Part shown: in pieces, positions 35,141-52,494 of the stretch
How the letters are laid out: each line of letters begins with the position of its first letter
How positions within the stretch are numbered: the first letter of the stretch is position 1
Origin: Phycicoccus flavus
Lineage (GTDB): Bacteria; Actinomycetota; Actinomycetes; Actinomycetales; Dermatophilaceae
Length of the DNA stretch: 64,000 bases
Assembly (NCBI RefSeq): GCF_004025965.2
Contig: NZ_SAYU02000005.1
Coordinates: forward strand, 1-64,000
Direction of reading: 5' to 3'
Program-made: the position numbers and the translations under genes
Notes under the pieces: generated by a model
The model's database searches: none
What the model saw: only the letters and a program-made list of their open reading frames with translations
What the model was told of the DNA's origin: nothing

Positions 35141-35170
35141 CCGCGGGCGCGCCCGCGAGGGCGCACCGCC

Positions 35171-35204: not shown

Positions 35205-35215
35205 GCCGTCCCGGC

Positions 35216-35599: not shown

Positions 35600-35682
35600 G
35601 CTCGGCACGCTAGTCCGGAGGACCGACACGCCCACCCCGGGCCACGGCGCCGTGCGACGATGGTCCCACGGAGGTGGTCCCC

Positions 35683-35880: not shown

Positions 35881-35928
35881 GCGGGCCGGGGACGAGAGCG
35901 CCGGGACCCCGGCCGCCCCGACGCGACG

Positions 35929-37170
35929 TCACGCTCCGCGACGCCGGGTCCCGACCCCCACGGTCGCCGTCAGGGCCACCGCGACGGCCGCGAAAGCCAC
36001 GAGCACACGGTGGTCGAGCGCCGTCACCACCGCGGCGGTCAGGGCGACCATGACCGTCTGCGGCACGTTGACGACGAGCATCGTGGCGGCGGCGACCCGG
36101 CCCTGGAGATGACCGGGGGTCAGCCGCTGCCGCAGCGTGACGAACGCGACCATCATCCAGGTCACCGCCCAGCCGGCGAGGGCGAGCCCCACCAGGCCGG
36201 TCACGAGGTGCTCGACGAGCAGCAGGGCGATCCCCGTCGCCATGACCACCAGCCCGAGACGGCACACCCGCGCCTCGCCGAGGCGGGAGGTGACCCGGCC
36301 GGCGGTGAGGGCCCCGCACGCCGCGCCGACGCCGTTCGCGGCGACGAGCACGCCGAGCGTCCCCGGCGGGCTGTCGAGGCCCTGCTCCACGAACGGGAAG
36401 ATCGCGACCTGGACGGTGCCGGTGGCACCGAGCCCGACCGCGAGGGTCAGGGTGAGGGTGCGCAGGGCGGGCACCGAGCGCAGGTGCCGGAAGCCGGCCA
36501 CGGCCTGGACGAGCCACCGCTCGCCGGACACCGGGCGCACGCCGCTCGTCGGGGGCCGCCCGCGCAGGAGCAGCGCCCCCGCCAGGACGAAGCCGGCCGC
36601 GGCCACCACCGCGACCACGTGGGGCCCGAGGACGACGTAGGCCCCCGTCGCGACGAGGGGGACCACCAGGCGTGCCCCCTGGTCGATCCCGGCCAGCAGC
36701 CCGTTGCCCCGCGCCAGGAGGGCGTCGGGGAGGAGGTCACGGACGAGCCCGGACTGGGCCGCCGCCCCGAGCTGGGCGGCCCCGGCGTAGACGACGGTGA
36801 CGACGTAGATCCACCCCACCCATCCGGGCCCGTCGACGAGCAGGAGCGTGGCGACGACGACGCCGGCGACGAGGTTGGACCAGCCGAGGACCGATCGCCG
36901 GGGCCACCGGTCGGCGAGGCCCGCGAGCAGCGGCGAGAAGAGCGTCGCGGCGCCGAGCAGGGCGAAGGTGAGGGCGGCGGCGCCGTCGTTCCCGGTGAGC
37001 TCCTTGACCCAGATGGCGAGGACGAGCAGCAGGGCGCTGTCGGCCAGGTTGGCGAGGACCCACGAGACCGTGAGGCGCCCGAAACCCGGCGTGCGCCACC
37101 AACGGCGGCCCTCCACCGGCCGGTGACGGTCCTCGACGTCGCTCCCCTCCCGGGGGTGCGCCGTGCTCAC
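35929..37170 (-). CDS. MFS exporter of the lanthipeptide cluster
   Basis: A 413-residue EntS-like major facilitator with twelve hydrophobic segments and the LLAGLADRWPRRSVLGWSN loop. The GTG start overlaps the flavoprotein stop (GTGA), making it the last gene of the biosynthetic operon. Coupling to a maturation enzyme suggests export of, or resistance to, the product, alongside the MacB-like ABC exporter. Direction and substrate are inferred from context. Confidence 0.85.
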   Translation of the reverse strand: MSTAHPREGSDVEDRHRPVEGRRWWRTPGFGRLTVSWVLANLADSALLLVLAIWVKELTGNDGAAALTFALLGAATLFSPLLAGLADRWPRRSVLGWSNLVAGVVVATLLLVDGPGWVGWIYVVTVVYAGAAQLGAAAQSGLVRDLLPDALLARGNGLLAGIDQGARLVVPLVATGAYVVLGPHVVAVVAAAGFVLAGALLLRGRPPTSGVRPVSGERWLVQAVAGFRHLRSVPALRTLTLTLAVGLGATGTVQVAIFPFVEQGLDSPPGTLGVLVAANGVGAACGALTAGRVTSRLGEARVCRLGLVVMATGIALLLVEHLVTGLVGLALAGWAVTWMMVAFVTLRQRLTPGHLQGRVAAATMLVVNVPQTVMVALTAAVVTALDHRVLVAFAAVAVALTATVGVGTRRRGA

Positions 37171-37802
37171 CCCGGCGCCGCACCCGCGGCGAGGGCGTCG
37201 CCGGACGCCACCGACCGGGCGCGCACGCTGCGGGCCAGCGCCAGGAGCACGGTGTGGATCGGGGCGGGGGACCCCGGCTCGACGGTGCGCGAGCTCGCCG
37301 ACCGGCCCTCGACGGAGTCCAGGACGACTCTCCCGCCGTCACGGAGCCGCTCGACGTTCGCGAGGTGGATCGGTGAGGTGGCCACCACCGGCGAGACCGC
37401 GGGGACGACGACCACGGGGCAGCGGGCGTTCTGGACGACGGTGAGGGCGAAGGTGTCCGCCAGACCCATGGCCAGCTTGGCGACGGTGTTCCCGCTGGCG
37501 GGGAGGACGAGCAGCCCGTCGGCCCAGTCGGCGAGGTCGCGGTGCGGGACCGGCAGGGCGTCGTCGGCGGGCCAGTCCGGACCGAGCAGGCGACCGCCCG
37601 TGGCCGCTCGCAGCGTCGTCGGGGTGACGAAGCGCAGCGCGTTCGGCGTGACGACGACCCTGACCTCGACGCCCGGGTACCAGGCCCGCACCGTCTCGAC
37701 CCAGCCCGGCAGCAGGGACACCGACAGCGCCCCGGTGCCGACGACGAGCAGGTGGCCCCGCGGCAGGTGCAGGTCGGCCGGCCGGAGCCCGACGGAGCTC
37801 AT
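37167..37802 (-). CDS. HFCD flavoprotein, predicted peptidyl-cysteine decarboxylase (LanD-like)
   Basis: A 211-residue FMN-binding protein of the homo-oligomeric flavin-containing cysteine decarboxylase family (EpiD, Dfp/CoaC, PAD). It has the nucleotide-binding start LLVVGTGALSVSLLPGW, the active-site His87 in VPHRDLADWADGLLVL and the PASANT-type motif as PASGNT (101-106). The downstream PAMN-like loop is altered to PAVS. Since the precursors end in cysteine, the expected reaction is oxidative decarboxylation of Cys28 to an aminoenethiol that closes an AviCys/avionin ring. It overlaps both the permease and the MFS genes (ATGA, GTGA). CoaC-type housekeeping function is unlikely in this operon. 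Confidence 0.85.
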   Translation of the reverse strand: MSSVGLRPADLHLPRGHLLVVGTGALSVSLLPGWVETVRAWYPGVEVRVVVTPNALRFVTPTTLRAATGGRLLGPDWPADDALPVPHRDLADWADGLLVLPASGNTVAKLAMGLADTFALTVVQNARCPVVVVPAVSPVVATSPIHLANVERLRDGGRVVLDSVEGRSASSRTVEPGSPAPIHTVLLALARSVRARSVASGDALAAGAAPG

Positions 37803-39070
37803 CGGTTCTCCCGCAGGGCGTCCATGGGATCCATCCGCGCCGCGCGGAGAGCCGGCGGCAGGGCGGCGACGAGCGCGGCGACCGTGACGCCGAGCACGAT
37901 GGCCACGAGGCTCGTGGCGTCGAAGGCGAAGAGCTCCAGACCCGGCAGGTCGAGCCCGGCGAGGTCGAGGGCCATCGGACCGAGCAGTCGCCCGGCCAGC
38001 ACCCCGAGCGCCACGGCGACGACGCTGCCGATGACGCCCAGCAGCGCGGCCTCCAGGGCCACCGAGGAGAAGACGCGACGACGCCCCATCCCGAGGGCGC
38101 GGAACATCCCGATCTGCCGCGTGCGCTCCTGGATCGACATCATCAGCGTGTTGACGATCCCGAACATGGCCGCGACGATCGCGACCCCCGCGAGCAGGTT
38201 GAGCAGCAGCAGGATGCCGTTCACGATGGACTTGTAGTCCCCGACCGTCTGCTCGGCGGTGGCGGTGGCGTAGCCCTGCGCGGCGACGTCCCGGCTGATC
38301 CGGTCCGGGTCCTCGCCGGTCACCAGGACGCTGGAGTACCACTGCGCGTCGTCCTCGGCCGAGCCCGCCCACGAGGCGTCCTGCAGCGCGTCGTCGAGGA
38401 CCTGGTTGCCGAAGGGCAGGTTCCCGCCGATGAGCGACTTCTCCTGCACCCCGACCACCGTCCCGGGCACGGTGCGCACCTCGCCGTCCTGCCCGAGCAC
38501 ACCGATCTCGACCGTCCGGCCGACGGCGTCCTGCGCGCTCGCGAAGCCGAGGGGCCGGGTGGCGTACGACGGGACGATCAGCTGGGCCTGGTCGGTGTCG
38601 TCGCGCAGCTGGTCGCCGGCGACGAGGTTGGCCGTCTTGCCCGGCCAGTAGCCGTTGTAGACGAACCGGTAGCGCTGGCCGCCGTCGTGGGAGTAGTAGA
38701 GGGCGCTCACCTGGCGGTTCGCCGAGTACTCGTCGTCCGGTCCGAGGGCCGAGGTGATCCGCTGCAGGTCCTCCTCGCCGAGGATGCCGGAGCCGACGTC
38801 CATGCCGCGCGCGGTGTCCATGTCGTCGCGGTAGACCTCCATCCGCTCGTTGAGGAAGGACATGACGCTCGTCCCGGTGACCTGGACGGTCCGGCTCGCC
38901 CCGACCGCGCGGGTCTGGGAGTCGATGTAGGTGTTGATGCCCGTGCCGAGGCCGCTCGTGACGGTGAAGGTGAAGGCGCCGATGGCGATGGCGACGATGG
39001 TGAGGAAGGCCCGCAGCGGACGGCGGAAGGTGTTCCGGCCCGCCGACCTGAGCAGGTCGCGGGGGGTCAT
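37799..39070 (-). CDS. MacB/FtsX-type ABC transporter permease
   Basis: A 423-residue permease. One N-terminal membrane helix (RAFLTIVAIAIGAFTFTVTSGLG) is followed by a large extracytoplasmic domain of about 230 residues. Three C-terminal helices carry the FtsX pattern (GIVNTLMMSIQERTRQIGMFRALGMGRRRVF). This is the MacB architecture, used for export or extraction of peptides and lipids. It overlaps the ATPase gene (ATGA) and the flavoprotein gene. It is likely to work with the ATPase in export of, or immunity to, the lanthipeptide. Confidence 0.9.
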   Translation of the reverse strand: MTPRDLLRSAGRNTFRRPLRAFLTIVAIAIGAFTFTVTSGLGTGINTYIDSQTRAVGASRTVQVTGTSVMSFLNERMEVYRDDMDTARGMDVGSGILGEEDLQRITSALGPDDEYSANRQVSALYYSHDGGQRYRFVYNGYWPGKTANLVAGDQLRDDTDQAQLIVPSYATRPLGFASAQDAVGRTVEIGVLGQDGEVRTVPGTVVGVQEKSLIGGNLPFGNQVLDDALQDASWAGSAEDDAQWYSSVLVTGEDPDRISRDVAAQGYATATAEQTVGDYKSIVNGILLLLNLLAGVAIVAAMFGIVNTLMMSIQERTRQIGMFRALGMGRRRVFSSVALEAALLGVIGSVVAVALGVLAGRLLGPMALDLAGLDLPGLELFAFDATSLVAIVLGVTVAALVAALPPALRAARMDPMDALRENR

Positions 39071-39774
39071 CGGACCGGCTCCGTCGCCGCCGGGTCGTCC
39101 GGGGCGAGCTCGCCGTCGACGATGGTCACCCGTCGCCCACAGCGCCGCGCCAGGTCGGTGCTGTGCGTGATGAGCACGAGGGTGATGCCGTCGTCCCGGT
39201 TGAGCTCGAAGAGCAGGTCGGCGACGGTGGCACCGTTCTCGACGTCGAGGGCGCCGGTCGGTTCGTCGGCGAAGATCACCCGCGGCCGGTTCGCGAGGGC
39301 CCGTGCCATGGCCACCCGCTGCCGCTGCCCGCCGGAGAGGTTCGCCGCGTTCTCGTCGGCCCGGTCGGCCAGGCCGAGCCGGTCGAGGACCTCCAGGGCA
39401 CGCTCGCGCCGCTCCTTGGCCGGGACCTTGGCGATCATCATCGGCAGCGCCACGTTCTCCAGGACGCTGGCCCGCTCCTCCAGGTGGAACTGCTGGAAGA
39501 CGAAGCCGAACTCCCGGTTGCGCATCCGGTCCTGGTCCCGGGTGCTCATGGTGTCGACGGGTTCGCCCTCGTAGCGGACCCGGCCGCCGTCGGGACGGTC
39601 CAGCGCACCGAGCAGGTGCAGGAGCGTCGACTTGCCGGACCCGCTCCGGCCCACGATCGCGAGGGAGTCCCCCGTGCGGGCCGAGAGCGAGACCCCCTTC
39701 AGGGCGCGGAACCGGTTCTCACCCGATCCGTAGACCTTCTCGAGGTCCTCGGCCTCCAGCTGTGGCGCGTTCAT
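39067..39774 (-). CDS. MacB/LolD-type ABC ATPase
   Basis: A 235-residue ABC ATP-binding subunit with Walker A VGRSGSGKSTLL, the Q-loop FVFQQFHL, signature LSGGQRQR, Walker B VIFADEPTGALD and the H-loop histidine in LITHSTD. FADEPTGALD is typical of the MacB/LolD/FtsE group. ATG with GGAGG upstream, overlapping the end of the S41 protease gene by 56 bp. Its partner is the FtsX-type permease immediately downstream. Confidence 0.93.
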   Translation of the reverse strand: MNAPQLEAEDLEKVYGSGENRFRALKGVSLSARTGDSLAIVGRSGSGKSTLLHLLGALDRPDGGRVRYEGEPVDTMSTRDQDRMRNREFGFVFQQFHLEERASVLENVALPMMIAKVPAKERRERALEVLDRLGLADRADENAANLSGGQRQRVAMARALANRPRVIFADEPTGALDVENGATVADLLFELNRDDGITLVLITHSTDLARRCGRRVTIVDGELAPDDPAATEPVR

Positions 39775-42388
39775 GGGTGCCTCCTTCGTCGGGTGCTGAC
39801 GCAGCGGGTTCGGGGTGTCGGTGGGCGCCGTCGGGGGTGGCGGGCGGCGGCAGGGGCAGCAGGTCGAGCAGGGCGTCGTCGTGGGCGGGTCCCGCCGCGA
39901 GGTCCTGCTCGCTCCGGCGGTCGGGGTCGAGCCCGCGGTTCTCCAGACCGAGCGATCGGCTGGTGCCCAGGCGGTACTGCGGCAGGACCAGCGACCGGCC
40001 GTCGCCGAGCGACCATCGCCGATGGAAGCCGGTGCCCGCCCCGGCGGTCCGTCGGCCGAGGACGAGGACGCGGGGGTGGCCGGCCAGGGCCGCCGCGAGG
40101 TGCTCGCCGCCGGACCCGGTGTGCTGGTCGACGAGGACGTCGACGTAGCGCGGGCCGCGCAGCAGGGCGTGCTCGCCGGTCCCCGGGGGGCGGGCCACGG
40201 CGTCGCGGGTCAGGAGGTGCAGCAGGAGGGCCGCCAGGTGGTCCGCGAACGGCCCTCCGCGGTTGTACCTGAGGTCGAGCACGAGCGGCTCGTCCCCGCG
40301 CCAGGACCGGCACAGGGCCTCGACGGCACGCAGGCCGGCGGCGGCCACGTCGGGGACGGCGAGGTAGCGCGCCCGCCCGTGGAGCCGGCCCGCGGCTCGG
40401 GCGCGCGCCTCGTCCACTCTCGAGGGGCACGGCGACGGTCCGGCGACGGAGCCGGGGGCGGACGCGGCAGTCGACGTGAGGAGGGCTGCGTGCGAGGACC
40501 CGAGGTCGCGCAGCGCGCTGCGCAGGGCGGTGTCGAGCTCGTCGTCGCCGACGCAGCGGGCGGCCCAGCGCAGGAGGTCGAGCGAGCGGTCCAGGAACGC
40601 CGCGCCCTCGGCCCTGGGGAGCGACCGGCCGGCGAGCAGGTCCAGGCAGCGGCGCATCGTCCGCTCGGCCCGGTCCGGCGGAGCGGGCACGTCGGTCGCG
40701 GCGGGCAGGTCCGGCGACGCTCGGTGCCGGGCCCGGGCCTCCCTCGGCCTGGGAGAGCCGGCCGCCCCGACGCCCGGCACCGGGACGAGGCCTGAGCGCT
40801 CGCGCACCCAGCACCCGGAGTCGTCCGTGACGACCTCGCGCACGTCGTGGAGCCCGCGGGCCAGCACCTGCACCGGAGGCGCCCCGGTCCTGCCGGCCTG
40901 CGCGCGCAGGACCGCGTGGGGGTCGACCGCGCACAGCACGCTGGGCTCGCGGACGGGCGCCGCGCTGCCGGTGAGCGGGCTCACCGGGGTGGAGACGAAG
41001 AGCAGCCGGTCGTCGGCCGCGAACACCGGCAGCCGGACGCCGGCCCCCGGCACGGTCACCGTCGCGCCCTCTCCCGAGGACGTCCGGGCGACCCGCAGGA
41101 CGGCGCCGGCCAGCTCGGTCTCCTCCGTCCACGCGACGACGGAGCCGTCGGCCCTCACCACGGGCGCTCCCCGCCGGTGGGCCGGGCGCGCCTCGAGGCC
41201 CCGGACCGGGCCGGTCCGCGGAACCCACACGACCCCGTCCGCGGCGCTCGCCAGCACGACGCCGGTGGCGGCCACGGCCGCGTCGTCGGCCTGGAAGACG
41301 ACGGCTGCGTCGGGCAGGGCGCGGGGACGGACGGTGGCGGTGGCCGGCTCGACCTCGAGGACGGCGGTGGCACCGCCGACCCGGACCACGGCCGTGAGCG
41401 CGCCGTCGCCGGTCCAGTCGGCGTGGGTCACCCACCCGTGCTCGGCGGGCAGTGCCCACACGTCGTCGTCAGTGGTCACGACGAGCCGTCCTGCGCCCAC
41501 GCGGGCCACGGCCGGCGCCCACGGGCTGCGCGTCGTGGCCTCCGCCGTCCAGGGGCGCGGGCCACCGGCCGGTGCGGTCGCGGCGGCCCCACCGGGGCCG
41601 CGGACCTCCAGGACCGCGTCGTCGGCCGGCCGCAGGGTGAGGACGTCGCCGGACACGCCGACGACGAGCCGGTCGCGGCCGCGGCGCAGCGAGGTGACGC
41701 GGCCGCGCCGCGCAAGGTGGTGACGGCGGACGGGACCGCCCCCGACCGGGACCGAGTACAGGTCCAGGGGGCCGTCGGGGTCGTCGAGCACGAAGACCCG
41801 GCCCCCGAGGAGGCAGGCGTCGGCGGGGTTGCCCCAGGGGTGGGGGTCCGGGGTCCATCGGCCGCCGTCGTCGCGGAGCAGCCGGCGGCGGCTGCCGCCG
41901 CGCCACCCGCGCACGTGGGCCGGGTGGACCCCTGCCGTGACCGCGACCCGGTGGCCTGCGGAGTCCTCGTCGAGGGCGCTGAGATGGGAGAGGGCGGAGG
42001 GGTGCAGGTCGTGCGGGCCGTGGACGTCGAGCTCGACGAGGGTGACGGGCGCATCGTCACCGTCCTCCTCGGGGACGCCCAGGACGACGGTGCCGCGGCC
42101 GCGCCAGGTCAGTGGCACGGGACGGAGCGACCCGGACCAGGCCACGACGGGCTCGGCGTCGGGCCCGGCGAGGACGCGGATCTCCGTCGTGCCGTCGACC
42201 TCGACGACGGCGACGCAGCCGTCGCCGTCGGGGTCGCCCAGCAGGTGCCGGACCCGGCCGCCGCCGACGTCGAGGCGGGCCGGGTCGCCGGTGCCGAAGG
42301 GCACGCACCACGCCTCGCCGGCGCAGAGGTACAGCACGTGCTCGCCGGCCATCGACGGGCTGCTCACGGCGGCGGTGGGTGTGGACAC
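39719..42388 (-). CDS. Tricorn-like S41 protease, candidate leader peptidase
   Basis: An 889-residue protein. The first 550 residues are repeated beta-propeller-like strands (many VxVxxDG..W blades). The C-terminal third is a peptidase S41 domain of tricorn type. Catalytic residues can be placed by comparison with tricorn: Ser632-His633 in LGSSHAA, nucleophile Ser759 in HTGSGGEHL and Glu816 in LENRGLDPD. The substrate-strand region is VLDLRYNRGGPF. No signal peptide, so it is cytosolic. The GTG at 42388 has GGAGGA upstream. Lying directly after the precursor genes, it is the best candidate to trim the leader peptide, possibly after modification. Confidence 0.85.
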   Translation of the reverse strand: MSTPTAAVSSPSMAGEHVLYLCAGEAWCVPFGTGDPARLDVGGGRVRHLLGDPDGDGCVAVVEVDGTTEIRVLAGPDAEPVVAWSGSLRPVPLTWRGRGTVVLGVPEEDGDDAPVTLVELDVHGPHDLHPSALSHLSALDEDSAGHRVAVTAGVHPAHVRGWRGGSRRRLLRDDGGRWTPDPHPWGNPADACLLGGRVFVLDDPDGPLDLYSVPVGGGPVRRHHLARRGRVTSLRRGRDRLVVGVSGDVLTLRPADDAVLEVRGPGGAAATAPAGGPRPWTAEATTRSPWAPAVARVGAGRLVVTTDDDVWALPAEHGWVTHADWTGDGALTAVVRVGGATAVLEVEPATATVRPRALPDAAVVFQADDAAVAATGVVLASAADGVVWVPRTGPVRGLEARPAHRRGAPVVRADGSVVAWTEETELAGAVLRVARTSSGEGATVTVPGAGVRLPVFAADDRLLFVSTPVSPLTGSAAPVREPSVLCAVDPHAVLRAQAGRTGAPPVQVLARGLHDVREVVTDDSGCWVRERSGLVPVPGVGAAGSPRPREARARHRASPDLPAATDVPAPPDRAERTMRRCLDLLAGRSLPRAEGAAFLDRSLDLLRWAARCVGDDELDTALRSALRDLGSSHAALLTSTAASAPGSVAGPSPCPSRVDEARARAAGRLHGRARYLAVPDVAAAGLRAVEALCRSWRGDEPLVLDLRYNRGGPFADHLAALLLHLLTRDAVARPPGTGEHALLRGPRYVDVLVDQHTGSGGEHLAAALAGHPRVLVLGRRTAGAGTGFHRRWSLGDGRSLVLPQYRLGTSRSLGLENRGLDPDRRSEQDLAAGPAHDDALLDLLPLPPPATPDGAHRHPEPAASAPDEGGTHERATAGGRGPREGLRIG

Positions 42389-42433
42389 GCTGTCCTCCTT
42401 TCCGAAGGGGCATGGGTCGGCGGGTGGTCGGGG

Positions 42434-42479
42434 ACCGGTGGGGCGACGCCTCGGGCGTCCGGGGTGCCGCCCCACCGGT
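42434..42479 (-). terminator. Stem-loop between the precursor genes and the S41 gene
   Basis: Twelve-base perfect arms (ACCGGTGGGGCG and complement) enclose 22 bases that contain a smaller ACGCC-TCG-GGCGT hairpin. It begins 13 bases after the stop of the second precursor gene. This position suits an attenuator that keeps precursor mRNA more abundant than the downstream protease and exporter message. Confidence 0.7.
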
Positions 42480-42491
42480 CCTCCTGCCTGG

Positions 42492-42578
42492 TCAGCAGGA
42501 CGTGCTCTGGAAGCTGGCGACGGTGACGTCGGCGGCCACCTCGACGACGTCGAGGTCGTGGATCTCGTCGATGGTCAT
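42492..42578 (-). CDS. Lanthipeptide precursor peptide 2
   Basis: A 28-residue peptide. The ATG has AAAGGAGGGG 8-10 bases upstream, a strong ribosome binding site. The acidic N-terminal part (residues 1-17) would be the leader; it has Ile3, Ile6, Leu9 and Val11-12 spaced like an amphipathic helix. The C-terminus is ASFQSTSC. Ser22-x-x-Ser25-x-x-Cys28 is the class III labionin/avionin spacing, with the cysteine as last residue, as needed for decarboxylation. Thr26 and Ser27 could also be dehydrated. It differs from precursor 1 only at residues 2, 9 and 10 (Thr, Leu, Asp here), and the last 18 residues are identical. The cleavage site is not known. Confidence 0.88.
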   Translation of the reverse strand: MTIDEIHDLDVVEVAADVTVASFQSTSC

Positions 42579-42624
42579 GGGACACCCCTCCTTTCCTGTG
42601 GTCGACGTGACAGGGGCGCTGTGG

Positions 42625-42711
42625 TCAGCAGGACGTGCTCTGGAAGCTGGCGACGGTGACGTCAGCGGCCACCTCGACGACCTCGACGTCGTGGATCTCG
42701 TCGATGGACAT
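42625..42711 (-). CDS. Lanthipeptide precursor peptide 1
   Basis: A 28-residue peptide, the first of the tandem pair in the direction of transcription. The ATG is preceded by GAGAGGAGGAA. It has Ser2, Val9 and Glu10 where precursor 2 has Thr, Leu and Asp; everything from residue 11 to Cys28 is identical, including ASFQSTSC. The DNA of the two genes is also nearly identical, and even the bases around the start are similar, indicating a recent 133 bp duplication. Both would yield the same core peptide. Confidence 0.88.
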   Translation of the reverse strand: MSIDEIHDVEVVEVAADVTVASFQSTSC

Positions 42712-42744
42712 GGGCGTTCCTCCTCTCTCGGCTCGTCGGTCGCG

Positions 42745-42761
42745 ACCCGGCGTCGCCGGGT
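42745..42761 (-). promoter_or_regulatory. Hairpin in the leader of precursor 1
   Basis: ACCCGGC-GTC-GCCGGGT, a perfect 7 bp stem with a 3-base loop, between the GNAT stop and the precursor 1 ribosome binding site. It may be a processing or attenuation site that separates precursor mRNA from the upstream message. No clear promoter was seen in this 62 bp gap. Confidence 0.45.
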
Positions 42762-42773
42762 GCGTCGTCTGGG

Positions 42774-43421
42774 TCAGGCCGACACGTCGGCCCGATCGCG
42801 GAGGGTGTCCCAGGAGCGGGACACCCGTGGCGAGCCGAGGGCGGCCCGCAGCGCACGGGCGCCGCGGTCCAGGTCCTGCGGCTCGAAGTTGCGCGTGGGC
42901 GAGTAGATGCGCCCGGCCGCGACGTGCTCGCGGTACTCGCCCTCGAGCATGCTGGCGACGACCGTCGAGGCGTACCGGCCGTCGACGAAGATCGTGTCCC
43001 GCAGCACCCCCTCCAGCGTCATGAAGCCCGCGCGCAGCATCCCCATCACGTGGTGGTTGAAGGTCGCGGCCCGCAGCTCGATGCGGTGGGCCCGCAGCTG
43101 GTCGAAGAGGTGCCCGATGCCCTGCTCGACGATGAACATCCCGTAGCCGCTGCCGACGAGGTGCGGCGCGACGGCGATACCGATGAAGTAGCTGCCCGAG
43201 CCCTGGTCCACCCAGTTGAAGACCCCGACGATGCCCTCGTCGTCCGTGACGGCGACGCGCAGCCCGGTCCCGGGGCTCGTGGAGGTGAGGTCCTCGGCCT
43301 CCACCTGGCCGTGGACGCCGTGGGCCAGGCGGCCCACCTCGCCCTTGAACCAGCCGAGGATCTCGGGGAGGTCGTCGTCCTCCAGCGGCCGCAGTCGGAC
43401 CGCGGGGTGGTTCTCAGACAT
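42774..43421 (-). CDS. GNAT-family acyltransferase of the cluster
   Basis: A 215-residue GNAT protein of the RimJ/RimL type: VRLRPLEDDDLPEILGWFKGE, the acyl-CoA strand FIGIAVAPHLVGSGYGMFIVEQGI, and NHHVMGMLRAGFMTLEGVLRDTIFVDG. It is about 40 residues longer than minimal RimL because of a C-terminal extension. Its ATG overlaps the LanKC stop by 8 bp and the precursor genes follow. In goadvionin biosynthesis a GNAT enzyme (GdvG) joins the acyl chain to the avionin peptide, so the same job is proposed here. A self-resistance acetyltransferase is the alternative. Confidence 0.85.
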   Translation of the reverse strand: MSENHPAVRLRPLEDDDLPEILGWFKGEVGRLAHGVHGQVEAEDLTSTSPGTGLRVAVTDDEGIVGVFNWVDQGSGSYFIGIAVAPHLVGSGYGMFIVEQGIGHLFDQLRAHRIELRAATFNHHVMGMLRAGFMTLEGVLRDTIFVDGRYASTVVASMLEGEYREHVAAGRIYSPTRNFEPQDLDRGARALRAALGSPRVSRSWDTLRDRADVSA

Positions 43422-45945: not shown

Positions 45946-47572
45946 GATCGCCCACCCCCTCCCGCAGCATCGGGGCGACGTCGTCCCGGGCGACCACCAC
46001 CCGGACCACCGTCGGCACGCCCGCCTGCGCGGCCGCGACCGCCTGCGCGAGCCGCGGACGGACCTGGGCGGGGCGCTCGACGACGAGGACGTCCCCGCGG
46101 TCGGCCGGGCCGAGGAGCCCGCCGGCGCGCTCGAAGCGCTGCGGGGACCCGGCGCCCTCGGCCTGCCGGGCGAGCCACCCCATCGCCCCGTCGTCGAGGA
46201 CGACGTAGAGCAGCCGGCGACGCGACGCGAGGATCTCGTCGGCGTCGGGACGCAGGGTCGCGAGGGCCGCGTCCCCGGTGACGCACACGACGAGCGGCTG
46301 CTCGGTCACCGCCGCCCCGGCGGCCGCGGCGACCCCGAAGCCGAGCGTCGTCTGCTCCGACGGGGCGATCGAGCGGGCCCGGTCCGGCAGCGTGAGGTGC
46401 GGGAACGCGTAGCTCCACATGTCGTGCAGCCCGTTCTCGTGGACCACCACCGCGTCCTCGGGCAGCAGGTCCGAGAGGGCGTGCACGACGAGGGCGCCGA
46501 GCGTGCCCTCGTCGCCCCGCGACTCCAGGAGGCGCGCCCGGACCCCGGCGACCCGTGCGGCCCACGCCGTCCGCTCGAGGACCGGGCCCCGTGCGACGAG
46601 CGCGTCCGCCCAGTCGGCGGCGTCGCGCACCAGGTGCGCCCCGGGCAACCGGTGGTGCACGCCGGCGGGGGTGGCGGTGACCTGCAGCCACGCGGACTCC
46701 GTCGGCATGCCCGTCAGCGCGGTCTCCTCGAGCTGGCTGCCGACGGCCACGACGAGGTCGCTGGACGCGACGAGGTCCCGTACGGGACCGGCCATGTACA
46801 GGCCGGCGACGCCGAGGAAGCGCGGGTGGGACTCGGGGACGCAGCCCCGGCCGGACGCGGTGACGAGGACGGCGGCGTCGGTCCGCGCGGCGAGGTCGAG
46901 GACCTGGGGCCGGGAGAGCGAGCGCGCACCGCTGCCGAGCAGCAGGCACGGCCGGCGCGCGGCGGTCAGGAGGTCGAGCGCCCCGTCGAGGCCCACCGGC
47001 ACGCTCCGGCCGTCGGGACCGGCGTCGACGGGGGACGGAGCGGCGTCGGGCACCTCGAGGTAGACGGGTCCCGCGGGTGCCGCGACCGCACGGGCCAAGG
47101 CCTCGCGGAGCATCGACGCCGCGTGTCGCGGGGTCGGCACCCGTGCCGCCCAGCGCGTGACGGGGGCGACGAGCGCGAGCGTCGGGGCGTCCTGGAAGGC
47201 CCGGTCCTGTAGGCGCTCGGTGGCGGTCCCGGCGGCGAGGACGACGACGGGCGCGTGCCCGTGGTCGGCCTCGAGCAGGCCGGGGACGGCGGCGGCGACG
47301 GCCGGTCCTCGTCCGACGAGGACCACCGCCGGGCGCCCGGTGGCGAGGGCGGACCCGGCCGCCATGTGGACCGCCGTCCGCTGGGACCGGCACCACTCGA
47401 CGGTCACGCCGTGGTCCTCCAGGGCCCGTAGCGCCCGCATGTCGTCGTCCGGCAGGCCGAACACGACCCGCACGCCCTGCTCCACGAGGGTGCTCGCCAC
47501 CTGCGTCCACGGGTCATCGGGGGCGGGGGCCGGGAGGACCGGGGGCGCCGCCACCGCGGTCACGGCGCTCAC
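45938..47572 (-). CDS. ThDP-dependent enzyme, divergent acetolactate-synthase-like
   Basis: A 544-residue protein with the three-domain layout of ThDP enzymes such as acetolactate synthase and benzoylformate decarboxylase. The N-terminal pyrimidine domain aligns as SQRTAVHMAAGSALATGRPAV, so the catalytic glutamate (usual HEQxAxHMA) appears to be glutamine. The central domain is PCLLLGSGARSL. The ThDP/metal motif reads VTGDAALATL...LDDGAMGW instead of GDG...NN. A role in decarboxylating a 2-keto acid or carboligating it to an aldehyde is plausible. The lost glutamate makes ordinary mechanism doubtful, though glyoxylate carboligase also lacks it. GTGA overlap with the ketosynthase gene. Confidence 0.82.
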   Translation of the reverse strand: MSAVTAVAAPPVLPAPAPDDPWTQVASTLVEQGVRVVFGLPDDDMRALRALEDHGVTVEWCRSQRTAVHMAAGSALATGRPAVVLVGRGPAVAAAVPGLLEADHGHAPVVVLAAGTATERLQDRAFQDAPTLALVAPVTRWAARVPTPRHAASMLREALARAVAAPAGPVYLEVPDAAPSPVDAGPDGRSVPVGLDGALDLLTAARRPCLLLGSGARSLSRPQVLDLAARTDAAVLVTASGRGCVPESHPRFLGVAGLYMAGPVRDLVASSDLVVAVGSQLEETALTGMPTESAWLQVTATPAGVHHRLPGAHLVRDAADWADALVARGPVLERTAWAARVAGVRARLLESRGDEGTLGALVVHALSDLLPEDAVVVHENGLHDMWSYAFPHLTLPDRARSIAPSEQTTLGFGVAAAAGAAVTEQPLVVCVTGDAALATLRPDADEILASRRRLLYVVLDDGAMGWLARQAEGAGSPQRFERAGGLLGPADRGDVLVVERPAQVRPRLAQAVAAAQAGVPTVVRVVVARDDVAPMLREGVGDRA

Positions 47573-48831
47573 GACGCCACCCCTGCGAGGACGACCGTCG
47601 CGTTGTGGCCGCCGAACCCGAAGGAGTTCGACATGCACAGCTCCGGCGCCGCGGTCCGGGCCACGTGGGGGACCAGGTCGAACTCGGGGAACTCCGGGTC
47701 GTCCAGGTTGATCGTCGGCGGCAGCATCCGGTCCCGCATGGCCTGGATGCAGAAGATCGCCTCCAGGGCGCCGGCGGCACCGATGAGGTGGCCGGTCGTC
47801 GACTTCGTCGAGCTGATCGGCACCCGGTGCGCGTGCTCCCCGAACACGGCGGCGATGGCGGCCAGCTCGGTCGCGTCGTTGTACGGGGTGCTCGTTCCGT
47901 GGGCGTTGACGTACCCGACGTCCGCGGGCGTGCAGCCGGCGTCGGCGAGCGCCTGCCGCATCGCGAGCTGTGCCCCGACGCCCTCCGGGTGGGGGGCGGT
48001 CGCGTGGTGGGCGTCCGAGGAGCAGCCGTAGCCCCGGACCTCGGCCAGCACCCGGGCGCCGCGGTCGCGGGCGGATGCCTCGGACTCCAGGAGCAGGGCC
48101 GCCGCCCCGGCGGACATGACGAACCCGCTGCGGGACCGGTCGAACGGACGCGAGCCGCGCTCGGGGGCGTCGTTGGAGTCGGTCGCGAGGGCCCGGATGT
48201 TGGCCGTCGCGGCGATGTCCTGGACGTTGAGGGAGTGCTCGGCGGTGACGACGAGGACGGCGTCGGCGTAGCCGTGGCGCACCATCCGCATGCCCTCGCC
48301 GACGCCGACCGTGCCGCTGGCGCAGGCCGCCGCGACGGCGTGGCTCGGGCCCTGGGCGTGCCACTCGACGCTGAGGTAGGAGCTGAGGCTGTCGTGCGCG
48401 CCGTAGACGGCACCGTTCGCCGACACGCCCCGCGGCCCCTTCGCCCCGAGCGACCGGGTGCCGAGATGGGTGACCTCGGTGGGCCCGTAGCCGCTGGCGG
48501 CCAGGACGGAGAACCGGTCGGACCGGAAGGGCGGCGCGCCCTCGTCGGTGACGTGGGCGGACATGGCCTCGCGGGCCGCGGCGACGCCGAGCTGCGCGTA
48601 GCGGCTCAACCGGCGCTGGTCGGGCCGGGACAGGTGCGCGGAGGGGTCGAACCCCGTCACCTCGCCGCCGATCGTCACCGTCAGCCCGTCCAGCTCGACG
48701 TCGGTGAGGGTCGCGATGCCGCTGCGCCCGGACGACGTGGCCGCCCACGCGCTCTCGGCGTCGAGGCCGTTGGGGGCGACCGCCCCGATGCCGGTGACGA
48801 CGACCCGCGCCGGCTCGTGGTGTGTCCTCAT
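47569..48831 (-). CDS. Beta-ketoacyl-ACP synthase (FabF-like)
   Basis: A 420-residue thiolase-fold ketosynthase. The Cys-His-His triad is intact: Cys170 in AVAAACASGTVGV, His311 in VNAHGTSTPYND and His348 in KSTTGHLIGAAG. It performs decarboxylative Claisen condensation on carrier-bound acyl chains. No acyl carrier protein, ketoreductase, dehydratase or chain-length factor is encoded nearby, so it must borrow a carrier or act in an unusual way. ATG start one base after the preceding stop; its own stop overlaps the ThDP gene. Part of the putative acyl-tail module. Confidence 0.92.
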   Translation of the reverse strand: MRTHHEPARVVVTGIGAVAPNGLDAESAWAATSSGRSGIATLTDVELDGLTVTIGGEVTGFDPSAHLSRPDQRRLSRYAQLGVAAAREAMSAHVTDEGAPPFRSDRFSVLAASGYGPTEVTHLGTRSLGAKGPRGVSANGAVYGAHDSLSSYLSVEWHAQGPSHAVAAACASGTVGVGEGMRMVRHGYADAVLVVTAEHSLNVQDIAATANIRALATDSNDAPERGSRPFDRSRSGFVMSAGAAALLLESEASARDRGARVLAEVRGYGCSSDAHHATAPHPEGVGAQLAMRQALADAGCTPADVGYVNAHGTSTPYNDATELAAIAAVFGEHAHRVPISSTKSTTGHLIGAAGALEAIFCIQAMRDRMLPPTINLDDPEFPEFDLVPHVARTAAPELCMSNSFGFGGHNATVVLAGVAS

Positions 48832-48832
48832 G

Positions 48833-51505
48833 TCAGGCGTCCCCGATCGTCGAGCCGAACCGCACGGCGGTCTGCGTGATGTTGACGGGCCCGAGCACCC
48901 GTCCGCCCCGGTGGGCGACGAACCCGGACTCCACCCCGTGTCCGCCGAAGGGCTCGTACGGCGTCGCCGCGTCGGCGAGGCTCTGGTCCATGGCGACCAT
49001 GTAGTGGTCGCAGAGGGTGCGGGCGGCGGTCTCCTCGACGGCGTACAGGGAGACCCCGAACCCGTTCTCCAGGTAGTACCGCGTGCGGAGCAGGTCGAGG
49101 ACCTCGCCGACCGAGCCGAAGCCGGCCATCGTGACGATCGGGGCGAAGTGCTCCACCGGCGCCGCCCGGCCCACGTCGTCCGTGCGCAGGACCGCGGGCG
49201 AGAAGGTCCGGCCGCGGTAGTCGACCTCGCCGCCGCTGACGATCGCCTCGGCGTGGGTGGTCAGGTGGCCCAGGGCGTGCAGCAGCGTCTCGTCCTTGAG
49301 CAGCGGGGCGAGGGCGCCGTCGTTCGCCCGGACGTACTCCGCGGCGGCCTCGACGACGAGGGGCACGAGCGTGTCGACCACGTCGTCGTGGGCGAGCACC
49401 AGGTCGGGGGCGAGGCAGTCCTGCCCGCCGTTGAACAGCCGCGAGATGACGATGTCCTTGGCCGCGGCCCGCAGGTCGGCCCCGCGGTTCACGACGATGG
49501 GGTTGACGCCCCGCCCGAAGAACAGCAGGACGTGCCGCTCGCCGAGCGCCTGCAGGATCTCCTCGGCGTTGGAGCGGCGACCCGTGAACAGCACGAGCGA
49601 CGGCCGGCTCGCCACGGTCTCGACGAAGGCCGCCTGGGTCGAGGTGTCGAGGGCGACGGGGCAGGGTGCCGCAGCGCCGAGCAGCTCGACGACCCGGGCC
49701 ATGACCGTCTCCGTGCCGCGGGCGGGACGCAGGCGTACCTCGCTCGCCCACAGGGACGGCACCAGGCAGTAGATGGCGAACGACTCCAACAGGGCGTTGC
49801 GCGGGAAGAACACGTCGACCGGCACGCGGGGCGGTCGGGTGTAGAGCCCGAGCTCCCCGTCGGCGTGGTTGAGCACGTTGACCAGGGACCAGTAGTCGCG
49901 GTGCGCCGTGGCCCGGTCGCTCGTCTCCTCGATCAGGGCGATGAGCTCCTGGCGGTTCTCGCGGACCGTGGCCCGCAGGCGGCCGGCGGGGGAGTCCGCG
50001 CGGCACTGGAGCGGGCCCTGGGCCTCGCCGAGTCCCTCGGCCAGGGCCCGCAGGCGGGCCCGGCTCACCTTGCCGCTGGAGTCCACCGGCAGGGTCCCGA
50101 GGACGCGGAGGTGGTCCGGCCGCTGGTCCTCGGCCAGCAGCCCGGCGACCCGGCGTCGCCAGACCTCGCGGGGCCGGTGGAGCGGGTCCTGGACGAACAG
50201 CCAGTAGCGGGCGGTCTCGCCGCTCTCGTCGGGCACGGCCACGGCCTCGACACCCTCGGCCGTCAGGGCCGCCTCGACCCAGGCGAGGGAGACGAGGCTG
50301 CCGCCCCGGCTGATCATCCCGCGGCGCCCGAGCACGACGAGCCCGTCGGCGGTCAGGCGGCCGACGTCCCCGGTGTCGAACCACGCCTGCGGGTCCGCCT
50401 CGACCGGGGGCCGCCCGTCGGTCCGTCCGACGAGCACGCGACCCAGCCGGCCGTCGGCGCAGGGCACCCCCGCGTCGTCGAGGACGGCGAGCCGGTAGGG
50501 CTCGACCGGGGTGAGCGCCCCGCGCCCCGGCGTCGACGCGAACGCCACGTTGCCCAGCTGGGTCAGACCGTAGCCGTCGGTCAGCGGCCGGTGGAGCCGC
50601 GCACGGGCGTCGTCCTGGAGGCGCGGTGACAGACCCTCGCCGCCGACCCCGAACAGGCGCACGGCGTCCAGCCGGGCGGTGCCCGCCGGCCGTTTGTCGA
50701 GCTCGTCGAGCAGGGCCCGGTACAGGACGGGCGTCGCGTCCAGGCAGGTGACCCCGTGCCGCTCGACGGTCCGCAGGACCTCGCCCAGCCGGGTGCGGGA
50801 GCAGGTGACGAGCCCGGCCCCGACGACGGCGGCGACGAGCACCGCGGAGGAGCCGTACTGCCCGGCGAGGGGGAGCAGCGGGAGCAGGGTGTCGTCGTCG
50901 TGGTAGCCCAGCGCCGCCGCGGTGGCCCGGGCGTTCTCGAGGAGGCTCGTCCCCGACTTCCACACCAGGGTGGGCTCGCCGGTCGTCGTGCCGGAGCTGA
51001 AGATCCCGAGGGCCCGGGACCGGGCGAACCACGCGCCGAGGTCGACGTCGGCGTCCGTCCGCTCCGTCCGGGCCGCCCACTGTGCCGGGTGCGGCCCCGA
51101 TCCCTCCAGCGGCCCGAAGACCGCCCGCAGGTCGTGTGCGGTGCCGCCGGGGGCCGCCCGCAGCGTGACCCGGACCGCGTCCTGGGGGACCGTGCCCGGG
51201 TGGGCCAGGCGCAGGCGGGCCAGGTCGTCGACGAGGACGACGCCGGCGCCGACGGAGGCCGCGGCCAGCAGGGTCACGATGCCGCGGCCGGTGTCGTCGA
51301 CCTCCAGGACGACCGTGCCGGAGGCGTCGACGCCGAGCTCCGCGAGGGCCGCGGCGGTGATCGCCACGGCATGCCGCAGCGCGTCGCCCTCGAGCGTCGT
51401 GCCGTGCCACGCGACCGAGCGGGGCAGGTGCCGCTTGTTCGGTCCGTCGCCGCGCGCCGGCCCCTCGACCGGCAGCCGCACCGGCCTCGTGGTGGTCGTC
51501 GTCAT
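48833..51505 (-). CDS. Adenylation (AMP-ligase) domain fused to an aldehyde dehydrogenase
   Basis: An 890-residue fusion. The N-terminal ANL adenylation domain has the P-loop SSGTTTGEPTLVWKSG near residues 170-185, DGYGLTQLGN, WFDTGDVGRL and the C-terminal Lys479 in VDSSGKVSR. After about residue 540 comes an aldehyde dehydrogenase superfamily domain with catalytic Cys697 in NGGQDCLAP. Its usual general-base ELGG segment reads FGRGVNP and lacks glutamate, as in acyl-reducing members. No carrier domain lies between. Possible reaction: activation of an acid as acyl-AMP or acyl-CoA and reduction to an aldehyde. First gene of the operon; ATG start. Confidence 0.88.
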   Translation of the reverse strand: MTTTTTRPVRLPVEGPARGDGPNKRHLPRSVAWHGTTLEGDALRHAVAITAAALAELGVDASGTVVLEVDDTGRGIVTLLAAASVGAGVVLVDDLARLRLAHPGTVPQDAVRVTLRAAPGGTAHDLRAVFGPLEGSGPHPAQWAARTERTDADVDLGAWFARSRALGIFSSGTTTGEPTLVWKSGTSLLENARATAAALGYHDDDTLLPLLPLAGQYGSSAVLVAAVVGAGLVTCSRTRLGEVLRTVERHGVTCLDATPVLYRALLDELDKRPAGTARLDAVRLFGVGGEGLSPRLQDDARARLHRPLTDGYGLTQLGNVAFASTPGRGALTPVEPYRLAVLDDAGVPCADGRLGRVLVGRTDGRPPVEADPQAWFDTGDVGRLTADGLVVLGRRGMISRGGSLVSLAWVEAALTAEGVEAVAVPDESGETARYWLFVQDPLHRPREVWRRRVAGLLAEDQRPDHLRVLGTLPVDSSGKVSRARLRALAEGLGEAQGPLQCRADSPAGRLRATVRENRQELIALIEETSDRATAHRDYWSLVNVLNHADGELGLYTRPPRVPVDVFFPRNALLESFAIYCLVPSLWASEVRLRPARGTETVMARVVELLGAAAPCPVALDTSTQAAFVETVASRPSLVLFTGRRSNAEEILQALGERHVLLFFGRGVNPIVVNRGADLRAAAKDIVISRLFNGGQDCLAPDLVLAHDDVVDTLVPLVVEAAAEYVRANDGALAPLLKDETLLHALGHLTTHAEAIVSGGEVDYRGRTFSPAVLRTDDVGRAAPVEHFAPIVTMAGFGSVGEVLDLLRTRYYLENGFGVSLYAVEETAARTLCDHYMVAMDQSLADAATPYEPFGGHGVESGFVAHRGGRVLGPVNITQTAVRFGSTIGDA

Positions 51506-51574: not shown

Positions 51575-51636
51575 ACACTAGGAAGGCCGGACCGGCCGCT
51601 CCATCCGTCCTTGGTCGCAGCCCTACGACTTTGGTC
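51575..51636 (-). promoter_or_regulatory. Operon promoter with candidate response-regulator boxes
   Basis: On the minus strand TAGTGT (51575-51580) is a likely -10, 70 bp before the adenylation-ALDH start. Upstream of its -35 region the plus strand reads GACTTTGGTC (51627-51636) and CCTTGGTC (51609-51616), a TTGGTC direct repeat about 20 bp apart. ACTTTGGT recurs upstream of the histidine kinase gene, which points to the cluster's NarL-type regulator. Confidence 0.55.
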
Positions 51637-52384
51637 AGACGCCACCGAACAGCTCCATCACCGCGGGCAGGTTGCGACCCATGAGGACGACCCCGACGAT
51701 GCCGAGGATCCAGCCGAGGGCCTCGCCGCCGTGCGCGGCGAACCAGCGGTCCAGCCGGCGCAGCAGGGGGTCCAGGAGGGGGGCCGCCACGCGGCGGGCG
51801 ACCACGAGGACCACCGCCGGCAGCACCATGACGACGCAGTAGCCGGCCAGCACGAGCGCCTTGACGGCGAACGGCCGGTCGGTGCCGGTCAGCAGGCCGA
51901 TGGCCGCGAGGTAGGGCAGCATCGTGCCGACCTCGACGAGCCCGACCGCCAGGGCCAGTCCCACGAGCGCGCGAGGCCTCGAGGCCCGGCCGGTGTCGTC
52001 GGCCCCGGCGGCCGCGGCCCGCCAGCGTCGGAGCCGCGGGTTGCCGCCGCCGGGACGCGTCGAACCGCCCGGCGGGTGGACGACGAAGCTCGCGCCGAGC
52101 AGGGCCGCACCAGCGAGGAACAGGACCCGCATGGCCGGCGGGCTCTGCCAGTCGACGTCCAGGGTCGCCACGAGGGCGTCCGCGCCGGCCAGCAGGACCA
52201 GCCCGACCCCGACGTAGAAGAGCGCCAGGGCGGCCAGGTACGTGAGGATCCGCCCCGGCCGTGGCCGGCCCGGCGCCAGCAGCAGCCAGACCGGGACGGC
52301 GAGGGTGCCGACGCTCAAGGAGTCCACGAGCGCCAGCGCGACCAGCGCCGGACCGAGGGCGAGAAGCGTGGAGGCACCGTCCAT
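51635..52384 (-). CDS. GAP-family membrane protein
   Basis: A 249-residue membrane protein with six hydrophobic segments, matching the GAP/Sap family related to LysE-type exporters. It starts LLALGPALVALALVDSLSVGTLAVPVWLLLAPGRP and ends WILGIVGVVLMGRNLP. In mycobacteria members help move glycolipids to the cell surface. The ATG at 52384 is chosen over longer frames. It is divergent from the histidine kinase gene and upstream of the biosynthetic operon on the same strand. Export of a lipidated product is a reasonable guess. Confidence 0.78.
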   Translation of the reverse strand: MDGASTLLALGPALVALALVDSLSVGTLAVPVWLLLAPGRPRPGRILTYLAALALFYVGVGLVLLAGADALVATLDVDWQSPPAMRVLFLAGAALLGASFVVHPPGGSTRPGGGNPRLRRWRAAAAGADDTGRASRPRALVGLALAVGLVEVGTMLPYLAAIGLLTGTDRPFAVKALVLAGYCVVMVLPAVVLVVARRVAAPLLDPLLRRLDRWFAAHGGEALGWILGIVGVVLMGRNLPAVMELFGGV

Positions 52385-52443
52385 GCGGGCAGCCTCACCC
52401 GGGCCGCCGTGCCCGTCGTCCGCCGAAGGACCGGCGACGGAGT

Positions 52444-52487
52444 ACCACTTTGGTGTGATGGCCCGCACGCACCGGGGCACCTACGGT
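52444..52487. promoter_or_regulatory. Divergent control region with ACCACTTTGGT box
   Basis: ACCACTTTGGT (52444-52454) shares ACTTTGGT with 51628-51635. TACGGT (52482-52487) is a -10 candidate placed 7 bp before the kinase ATG at 52495, implying a leaderless message with the box near -45. The GAP gene starts at 52384 on the other strand, so one site could serve both. Confidence 0.5.
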
Positions 52488-52494
52488 GGACACC

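What the first reader, a model, noticed from the sequence alone, without database searches (positions are those of the whole stretch)
42492..42711. Tandem, nearly identical 28-residue precursor genes with C-terminal SFQSTSC
Both peptides have strong ribosome binding sites and differ only at residues 2, 9 and 10, with identical residues 11-28. Ser22-x-x-Ser25-x-x-Cys28 is the labionin/avionin spacing, and Cys at the very end is what a LanD decarboxylase needs. Genes this short are easily missed by automatic gene calling. The duplication keeps the core fixed while the leader drifts, suggesting dosage rather than diversification.
Basis: partly seen in the sequence, partly recalled or inferred. 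Interest (0 to 1): 0.9.

Follow-up and report, generated by a model that had tools for sequence, protein, structure and literature searches.

The report
Twin precursors of a lipidated lanthipeptide
Two almost identical, very short genes encode the peptide part of what looks like a lipolanthine, a small ring-shaped peptide with a fatty tail, and they sit in an operon whose tail-making and processing genes differ from the known examples.

Summary
Two 28-codon genes lie on the minus strand at 42492-42578 and 42625-42711, both ending ASFQSTSC, with strong ribosome-binding sites; shuffled sequence gave no such gene. They sit inside a tight 12-gene operon encoding a class III lanthipeptide synthetase (LanKC), a LanD-type flavoprotein, a GNAT acyltransferase, a ketosynthase, a fused acyl-AMP ligase/aldehyde dehydrogenase, a thiamine-diphosphate enzyme, an S41 tricorn-like protease and exporters. 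The core has the layout of nocaviogua, a published lipolanthine: Ala1, avionin 2-5-8 (PMC10435860). Among 80 named LanKC loci, ten have GNAT plus AMP-ligase/ALDH; by a strict filter nine of those ten, and none of 67 others, have such precursors (the tenth was rejected only for a weak ribosome-binding site), and nine of ten carry them in tandem. So the twin genes are normal for this family. Most likely product: an N-acylated avionin octapeptide. New here are a PKS-free acyl module, a tricorn-like protease beside the precursors, and a leader with IHDL/IHDV where 23 of 23 listed relatives' peptides have LQ. Chemistry and activity are untested.

The parts
42625..42711 (-). LanA1, precursor peptide MSIDEIHDVEVVEVAADVTVASFQSTSC
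   Evidence: ORF and ribosome-binding site; 80 of 84 coding bases shared with LanA2
42492..42578 (-). LanA2, precursor peptide MTIDEIHDLDVVEVAADVTVASFQSTSC
   Evidence: no other copy in the genome
43414..45945 (-). LanKC, class III lanthipeptide synthetase (843 aa)
   Evidence: NF038151 611 bits, cut-off 575; PF25816 RamC_N; the only match to it in the genome
42774..43421 (-). GNAT, proposed N-acyltransferase that joins acyl chain and peptide
   Evidence: PF13302/PF00583; beside the GNATs of ten lipolanthine-type loci in the tree, SH-aLRT 83; AU test p 0.09
37167..37802 (-). LanD-type flavoprotein, proposed peptidyl-cysteine decarboxylase
   Evidence: PF02441; PDB 6jls E 6.9e-19, CypD 6jdd E 4.9e-15, EpiD 3qjg E 8.1e-7; NCBIfam CypD 63 bits but CoaBC 85 bits, both far below cut-off; a separate CoaBC-like hit lies on C120
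45938..47572 (-). ThDP-dependent enzyme (acetolactate-synthase-like), proposed starter-unit step
   Evidence: PF02776/PF00205/PF02775; far below the cut-off of each NCBIfam model shown; GTG start
47569..48831 (-). beta-ketoacyl synthase, FabF type
   Evidence: PRK07314 subfamily model 429 bits, cut-off 387; grouped with L149/L074 KAS, support 96
48833..51505 (-). acyl-AMP ligase fused to aldehyde dehydrogenase
   Evidence: PF00501 + PF00171; GQDC stretch kept in all 20 aligned rows
39719..42388 (-). S41 protease, tricorn-like C-terminal part; candidate leader peptidase
   Evidence: PF03572; tricorn 1k32 E 1.4e-8 over residues 664-827; no match of 50 bits or more in 80 LanKC loci
39067..39774 (-). 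ABC transporter ATPase (LolD/MacB type)
37799..39070 (-). FtsX/MacB-type permease
35929..37170 (-). MFS transporter, last gene of the run, overlaps LanD by 4 bases
   Evidence: PF07690; overlap
51635..52480 (-). SfLAP (Sap) family membrane protein, just upstream of the operon; possible accessory
   Evidence: PF11139
52486..54404 (+). two-component sensor kinase and LuxR-type response regulator, possible regulator
   Evidence: PF07730 and PF00072/PF00196

Best explanation
The two genes are tandem precursor genes of a lipolanthine-type lipopeptide. LanKC binds the helical leader (residues 1-20), phosphorylates and eliminates Ser22 and Ser25 to dehydroalanines; LanD oxidatively decarboxylates the terminal Cys28; the resulting enethiol adds to residue 25 and the enolate adds to residue 22, giving one avionin bicycle. 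The leader is cut off before Ala21, perhaps by the tricorn-like S41 protease. The AMP-ligase/ALDH, ThDP enzyme and KAS make and activate an acyl chain, and the GNAT puts it on the Ala21 amino group. ABC/FtsX and MFS proteins export it. Shown: the genes, the operon layout, the family assignments, and the association of such precursors with GNAT plus AMP-ligase/ALDH. Inferred: every chemical step, the cleavage site, the acyl structure, the activity.
For: Run of 12 genes with junctions from -56 to +103 bases. LanKC, LanD, GNAT, KAS, AMP-ALDH and ThDP families. The core ASFQSTSC has the layout of nocaviogua Ala1-Avi2-x-x-Avi5-x-x-Avi8 with an acyl chain on Ala1 (PMC10435860, parts 1-3 of 4). Short single-Cys SxxSxxC precursors occur in 9 of 10 LanKC loci with GNAT plus AMP/ALDH and in 0 of 67 without, p 6e-11 (77 of 80 loci had enough DNA after LanKC); the tenth, L193, has three copies with a weak ribosome-binding site. 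Tandem copies in 9 of those 10. KAS groups with the L149/L074 clusters, which also carry two identical precursors, LanKC, GNAT, fused AMP-ALDH and ThDP genes, support 96. The other two relatives with LanD close by (L129, L136) also have ASxxSxxC cores. [quoted passage not shown]
Against: LanD was found near LanKC in only 2 of 13 relatives. In the other 11 none lies in the fetched DNA, and in the genome-wide flavoprotein search no hit lies within 60 kb of LanKC on the same contig (contig lengths; one hit of the L193 genome, on C34, could not be placed), so most of the family may make labionin rather than avionin. NCBIfam scores the window LanD higher as CoaBC (85 bits) than as CypD (63 bits), both far below cut-off, and it lacks the PxMNxxMW clamp that I recall for EpiD. 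The LanKC trees do not settle whether this LanKC is kin of lipolanthine-type LanKCs or of a group without acyl genes. GNAT identity to 12 relatives is only 30-37% over the aligned parts; one clade with ten of them has p 0.09, and those ten without the window are marginally rejected as a clade, p 0.048, because a GNAT from a locus without LanKC falls among them. The ThDP enzyme has altered cofactor motifs, and no ACP, KR, DH or ER gene was recognised among the twelve genes. No expression or product data. Nocaviogua itself had no antibacterial effect up to 128 ug/mL.
Confidence: 0.7

Rival explanations
1. A non-lipidated class III lanthipeptide with a C-terminal avionin. GNAT only acetylates (self-resistance or capping), and the KAS, AMP-ALDH and ThDP genes serve another product.
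For: The LanKC placement and non-LQ leaders resemble L057 and L070-L072, none of which showed a GNAT or KAS match in the fetched 20 kb, and L072 has LanD. The GNAT's solved relatives are acetyltransferases.
Against: The acyl genes run into LanKC and GNAT with gaps of at most 1 base. In the 80-locus set only loci with GNAT plus AMP/ALDH have SxxSxxC precursors of this size.
Confidence: 0.13
2. The peptide carries labionin or lanthionine rather than avionin; LanD acts little or on another substrate. (This overlaps with the best explanation except for the ring chemistry.)
For: 11 of 13 relatives with the same precursor type have no LanD in the fetched DNA nor a flavoprotein placed within 60 kb of LanKC, and some relatives' precursors have residues after Cys (L063, L118, L176, L182).
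Against: Both window precursors end in Cys and LanD overlaps both neighbouring genes by 4 bases.
Confidence: 0.15
3. A decayed cluster: the ORFs are intact but the pathway is silent or broken.
For: ThDP enzyme with GDG changed to GDA, Asn to Asp and the usual Glu replaced; long branches in the LanKC and ThDP trees.
Against: No internal stop in any of the 12 frames; strong ribosome-binding sites at the precursors; ALDH GQDC stretch kept; the Glu is also missing in 18 of 19 relatives' ThDP enzymes.
Confidence: 0.08

Closest known systems
Nocaviogua A/B (lipolanthines of Nocardia sp. XZ19_369)
   Same: 8-residue core with Ala1 acylated and avionin at 2, 5, 8 (PMC10435860, parts 1-3 of 4)
   Different: Core ASVSS(D/N)GC against ASFQSTSC; [quoted passage not shown] the parts of the paper that I read do not describe its gene cluster
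Microvionin/nocavionin (Wiebach et al. 2018, 2020; not held, seen through passages of reviews PMC10885120 and PMC10373908)
   Same: LanKC plus LanD (MicKC-MicD), N-terminal fatty acyl group, helix-forming leader sequence
   Different: Leader removal there is by M1-type proteases MicP1/MicP2 encoded outside the cluster; here an S41 protease lies in the operon, though two M1 peptidases exist elsewhere in the genome
Streptoalloteichus tenebrarius DSM 40477 locus (L129/L236)
   Same: LanKC, precursor core ASFSSNSC, AMP ligase, KAS, GNAT, LanD, MFS
   Different: Has a type I PKS with KS-AT-DH-KR-ACP and separate SDR/enoyl-reductase-type genes; single precursor found; LQ leader; its ThDP enzyme is of a different line
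Streptomyces ficellus (L149) and G770 (L074) loci
   Same: Two identical tandem precursors, LanKC, GNAT, fused AMP-ALDH, KAS, ThDP; KAS sister to the window's
   Different: Core GSTISNSC; no LanD found nearby; LQ leader; SDR and NUDIX genes present; no S41 match
Lipoavitides (Ren et al. 2024; paper not held, seen only as a citation and one sentence in PMC13060382)
   Same: [quoted passage not shown] that an acyltransferase joins the parts is recalled
   Different: Recalled: KAS III-based 4-hydroxy-2,4-dimethylpentanoyl group; here FabF-type KAS with AMP-ALDH and ThDP

Membership tests
Class III lanthipeptide | LanKC synthetase (lyase-kinase-cyclase) | tested here: met
   NF038151 611 bits over cut-off 575; class IV model 277 bits, cut-off 650
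Class III lanthipeptide | LxLQ-type leader motif (frequent, not universal) | tested here: not met
   IHDL/IHDV in its place; 23 of 23 listed family peptides have LQ. L057, L070, L072 (H) and L071 (MQ) also lack it. PMC7268733 calls LxLQ a frequently observed motif (passages), so it is not taken as disqualifying
Lipolanthine | 8-residue core with Ser2/Ser5/Cys8 and Ala1 | tested here: met
   ASFQSTSC against nocaviogua; that the core starts at Ala21 is inferred
Lipolanthine | LanD cysteine decarboxylase in the cluster | tested here: met
   gene family met; NCBIfam cut-offs for CypD and CoaBC both not reached
Lipolanthine | Acyltransferase plus fatty-acid or polyketide genes in the cluster | tested here: met
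   GNAT, KAS, AMP-ALDH, ThDP; no PKS recognised
Lipolanthine | Avionin macrocycle in the product | not testable with these tools
   needs mass spectrometry or NMR
Lipolanthine | N-terminal acyl chain in the product | not testable with these tools
   needs mass spectrometry
Lipolanthine | LanKC kin of lipolanthine-type LanKCs | tested here: inconclusive
   one clade with 13 such LanKCs not rejected (p 0.32), one with L149, L074, L063 neither (p 0.56), but the best tree puts it with five others, support 92
Lipolanthine | Repeated theta-xx leader pattern (as quoted in PMC10885120) | tested here: met
   I3-I6-L/V9-V12 in both copies; looked for after seeing the sequence; the four-theta form is in 3 of 23 listed relatives' peptides, the three-theta form in 22 of 23

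The most novel reading that the evidence does not exclude
A lipolanthine line with its own solutions at three steps: a LanKC that reads an IHDL-type rather than LQ leader, an in-operon tricorn-like S41 protease as dedicated leader peptidase (the RiPP-protease review PMC10885120 has no occurrence of 'S41 family' or 'tricorn'), and a PKS-free acyl module (fused AMP-ligase/ALDH, FabF-type KAS and a ThDP enzyme lacking the usual catalytic Glu) that makes an acyl group not yet seen in the family.
Probability: 0.3. Interest if true: 0.6.

Novelty: new variant of a known kind. Interest (0 to 1): 0.5.

Why it matters
PMC10435860 (2023) counts only 12 lipolanthines in three groups before its own two; microvionin acts on MRSA at under 0.46 ug/mL, while nocaviogua showed no antibacterial effect, so activity cannot be assumed. 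This work gives a sequence signature (short, single-Cys, mostly tandem SxxSxxC genes beside LanKC, GNAT and AMP-ligase/ALDH) that marks 10 of the 80 LanKC loci examined, and a cluster without a polyketide synthase, whose acyl route might be rebuilt with few enzymes. The contrast between LanD-bearing and LanD-lacking relatives makes the avionin-or-labionin choice testable with natural enzyme sets.

Tried and rejected
Coincidence: rejected by shuffles and operon context. Genes on the opposite strand: the plus-strand ORFs over the site look like mechanical high-GC ORFs; a home-made GC-position gene picker with a 50-codon floor (so blind to the precursors) chose the minus-strand genes of the operon except LanD, where it took nothing, and ThDP, where it took plus-strand shadow ORFs. 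First genome-contig scan with the window LanKC alone found no relative; the second, with a four-sequence alignment, gave 80 loci. GNAT as a marker: 69 of 185 other family genomes had matches, best E 6e-15, and one of them (L003/L266) sits among the lipolanthine-type GNATs in the tree with no LanKC match in 20 kb, so this GNAT group is not confined to lanthipeptides. Independent assembly of the cluster from another LanKC line: suggested by the first tree, not supported by the tests, so not claimed. Naming the acyl chain: the module also occurs without LanKC, in L109 beside a PKS fused to a class I/II aminotransferase domain and in L115 beside such an aminotransferase and an ACP, and no enzyme in the window fixes the starter unit; a guanidino acyl group by analogy with nocaviogua remains a guess. 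Literature: six searches. In the last, ASFQSTSC and four relatives' core strings had no hit; a fifth relative's string hit 15 papers whose titles (stents, neurons and the like) are unrelated. PMC12291118 was seen as an outline and PMC9415263 in passages; neither is relied on. Structure prediction was not used.

Full report
What is there. Two 28-codon ORFs on the minus strand, 42492-42578 and 42625-42711, encode peptides that differ at residues 2, 9 and 10 and share residues 11-28, ending ASFQSTSC. The DNA differs at four bases: codons 2, 9, 10 (T/S, L/V, D/E) and a silent change at codon 16. Outside the coding parts the best local alignments between the two copies are short and centre on the ribosome-binding sites. 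Only these two ORFs in 64 kb satisfy 'ATG, 20-45 codons, ribosome-binding site, [ST]xx[ST]xxC end'; 40 Markov shuffles gave none. The genome holds no third copy.

The operon. Reading from 51505 down to 35929 the minus strand carries AMP-ligase/ALDH fusion, FabF-type KAS, ThDP enzyme, LanKC, GNAT, LanA1, LanA2, S41 protease, ABC ATPase, FtsX permease, LanD, MFS. None of the twelve frames has an internal stop. Eight of eleven junctions overlap or leave at most one base; the gaps around the precursor genes are 62, 46 and 103 bases (ThDP start corrected to the GTG at 47572). The LanD is a flavoprotein: its closest solved relatives are 6jls 'putative flavoprotein decarboxylase' (E 6.9e-19), 7cfu and cypemycin decarboxylase 6jdd (E 4.9e-15), ahead of CoaBC 6tgv (E 4.4e-12). 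Against this, NCBIfam gives 85 bits to its CoaBC model and 63 to CypD, both far below cut-off; the genome has another, CoaBC-like hit on C120. The S41 protein matches tricorn protease 1k32 over residues 664-827 (E 1.4e-8).

Surroundings. The operon, an SfLAP-family gene, a two-component system and a SnoaL-like gene fill the 19.3 kb between tsf and pyrH. I fetched this interval for 10 of the 11 other genomes of the genus found; one stretch (L263) is cut by a contig end. In the other nine it is about 0.2 to 9.1 kb and has no match at E 1e-8 to LanKC, LanD, GNAT, KAS, ThDP, AMP-ALDH, S41, FtsX or the MFS; two (L258, L260) have a weak ABC-ATPase match (28-29% identity) and three a SnoaL match. The cluster is therefore an accessory island at a variable spot.

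Relatives. In 396 genomes of the order 19 have a LanKC match at E 1e-40 or better, and in 394 of the class 3 at 1e-100; both counts include the window's own genome, and only two candidates per genome were scored. None but the own match exceeds 39% identity. A scan of named genomes with an alignment of four LanKCs kept the best 80 of 552 relatives. I searched them for the window's proteins, helped by a few homologues from L063, L072 and L074, and for short single-Cys ORFs with SxxSxxC at the end. Ten loci have GNAT (60 bits or more) plus AMP-ligase/ALDH (100 bits or more), all ten also KAS: Streptoalloteichus tenebrarius, Streptomyces sp. A3M-1-3, Prauserella salsuginis, S. ficellus, Amycolatopsis jejuensis, Saccharomonospora sp. 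NB11, Kutzneria sp. 744, Saccharopolyspora endophytica, Crossiella sp. SN42, S. endophytica. Nine of them pass the strict precursor filter and none of 67 other loci does (77 of 80 had at least 800 bases after LanKC; Fisher p 6e-11). The tenth, Saccharopolyspora, has three precursor copies with a weak ribosome-binding site that the filter rejected; the filter was not relaxed for the others. Nine of ten have two to four copies. Caveats: the loci were ranked by LanKC similarity to a query set that included such clusters, and 18 of 80 loci are shorter than 22 kb, so acyl genes could be missed in some.

Known chemistry. Nocaviogua, a lipolanthine, is acyl-Ala1-Avi2-Val3-Ser4-Avi5-Asp/Asn6-Gly7-Avi8 (PMC10435860; parts 1-3 of 4 read). 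The window core A-S-F-Q-S-T-S-C fits this register exactly. Microvionin uses MicKC and MicD (PMC10373908, passages), and a leader sequence with repeated theta-xx spacing was critical there for modification (PMC10885120, passages); the window leader has I3-I6-L/V9-V12. PMC13060382 names few GNAT-lipidated lanthipeptides (passages).

LanD and core type. LanD lies near LanKC in the window, in L136 and in L129 (same contig). All five precursor peptides of these three loci have ASxxSxxC cores; of the 29 peptides that I counted in the other eleven relatives two do. This was noticed after the fact. In those eleven no LanD was found in the fetched DNA, and the genome-wide flavoprotein search placed none within 60 kb of LanKC on the same contig (one L193 hit unplaced). 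They may make labionin, or use an unlinked decarboxylase.

Kinship of the parts. The KAS groups with L149/L074 (support 96) and the ThDP enzyme likewise (88, not starred). The GNAT stands beside ten lipolanthine-type GNATs (83; clade test p 0.09); L129 and L136 dropped out of that tree because no ORF fitted, and the ten alone are marginally rejected as a clade, p 0.048. The LanKC is on a long branch: the best tree joins it with L057 and L069-L072 of the same order (support 92), four of which lack the LQ (MTIDQMHDL, MSLDQLHSL and the like) while L069 has it, but a clade with all 13 lipolanthine-type LanKCs is not rejected (p 0.32). I do not claim separate assembly.

Verdict. A real, probably working lipolanthine-type cluster with twin precursor genes. 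Tandem copies are the rule in this family, so that part is ordinary. The PKS-free acyl module, the tricorn-like protease and the leader type make it a new variant. Every step of chemistry is inferred from gene families and from relatives. The rival odds overlap and are not meant to sum to one.

Noticed in passing
45938-47572 and the ThDP enzymes of L075, L149, L109-L119 and others: The acetolactate-synthase-like ThDP enzymes of this module read RDQR (window RSQR) where the more ordinary L129 enzyme has RHEQ, so the usual catalytic Glu position (recalled) is Gln in 18 of 19 relatives and the window; the window also has GDA for GDG and Asp for the metal-site Asn.
   Followed up: partly
35140-54474, and L256-L262, L264, L265: The tsf-pyrH interval is a variable cargo site in this genus: about 0.2 to 9.1 kb in nine relatives, 19.3 kb here.
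   Followed up: partly
L072 (G185), precursor 7854-7952, LanD 234-905: A LanKC cluster in the same family with a LanD and a Cys-terminal precursor MTIDQMHDLESDLQGEELSNARTTLSLFGMHC but no GNAT match: possibly a non-lipidated avionin-type peptide with the same H-type leader.
   Followed up: partly
L109-L117, L119: The AMP-ligase/ALDH, ThDP and, except in L119, KAS genes occur together without a LanKC match; in L109 near a PKS fused to an aminotransferase domain and in L115 near a separate aminotransferase and an ACP, so the acyl module serves other pathways too.
   Followed up: partly
L266 9533-10207 (G066): A GNAT that sits among the lipolanthine-type GNATs in the tree but has no LanKC match in the fetched 20 kb.
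   Followed up: no
35216-35710: A SnoaL-like protein after tsf; homologues lie in the same interval in three of nine genus relatives, so it is probably older cargo of the site and not part of the cluster.
   Followed up: no
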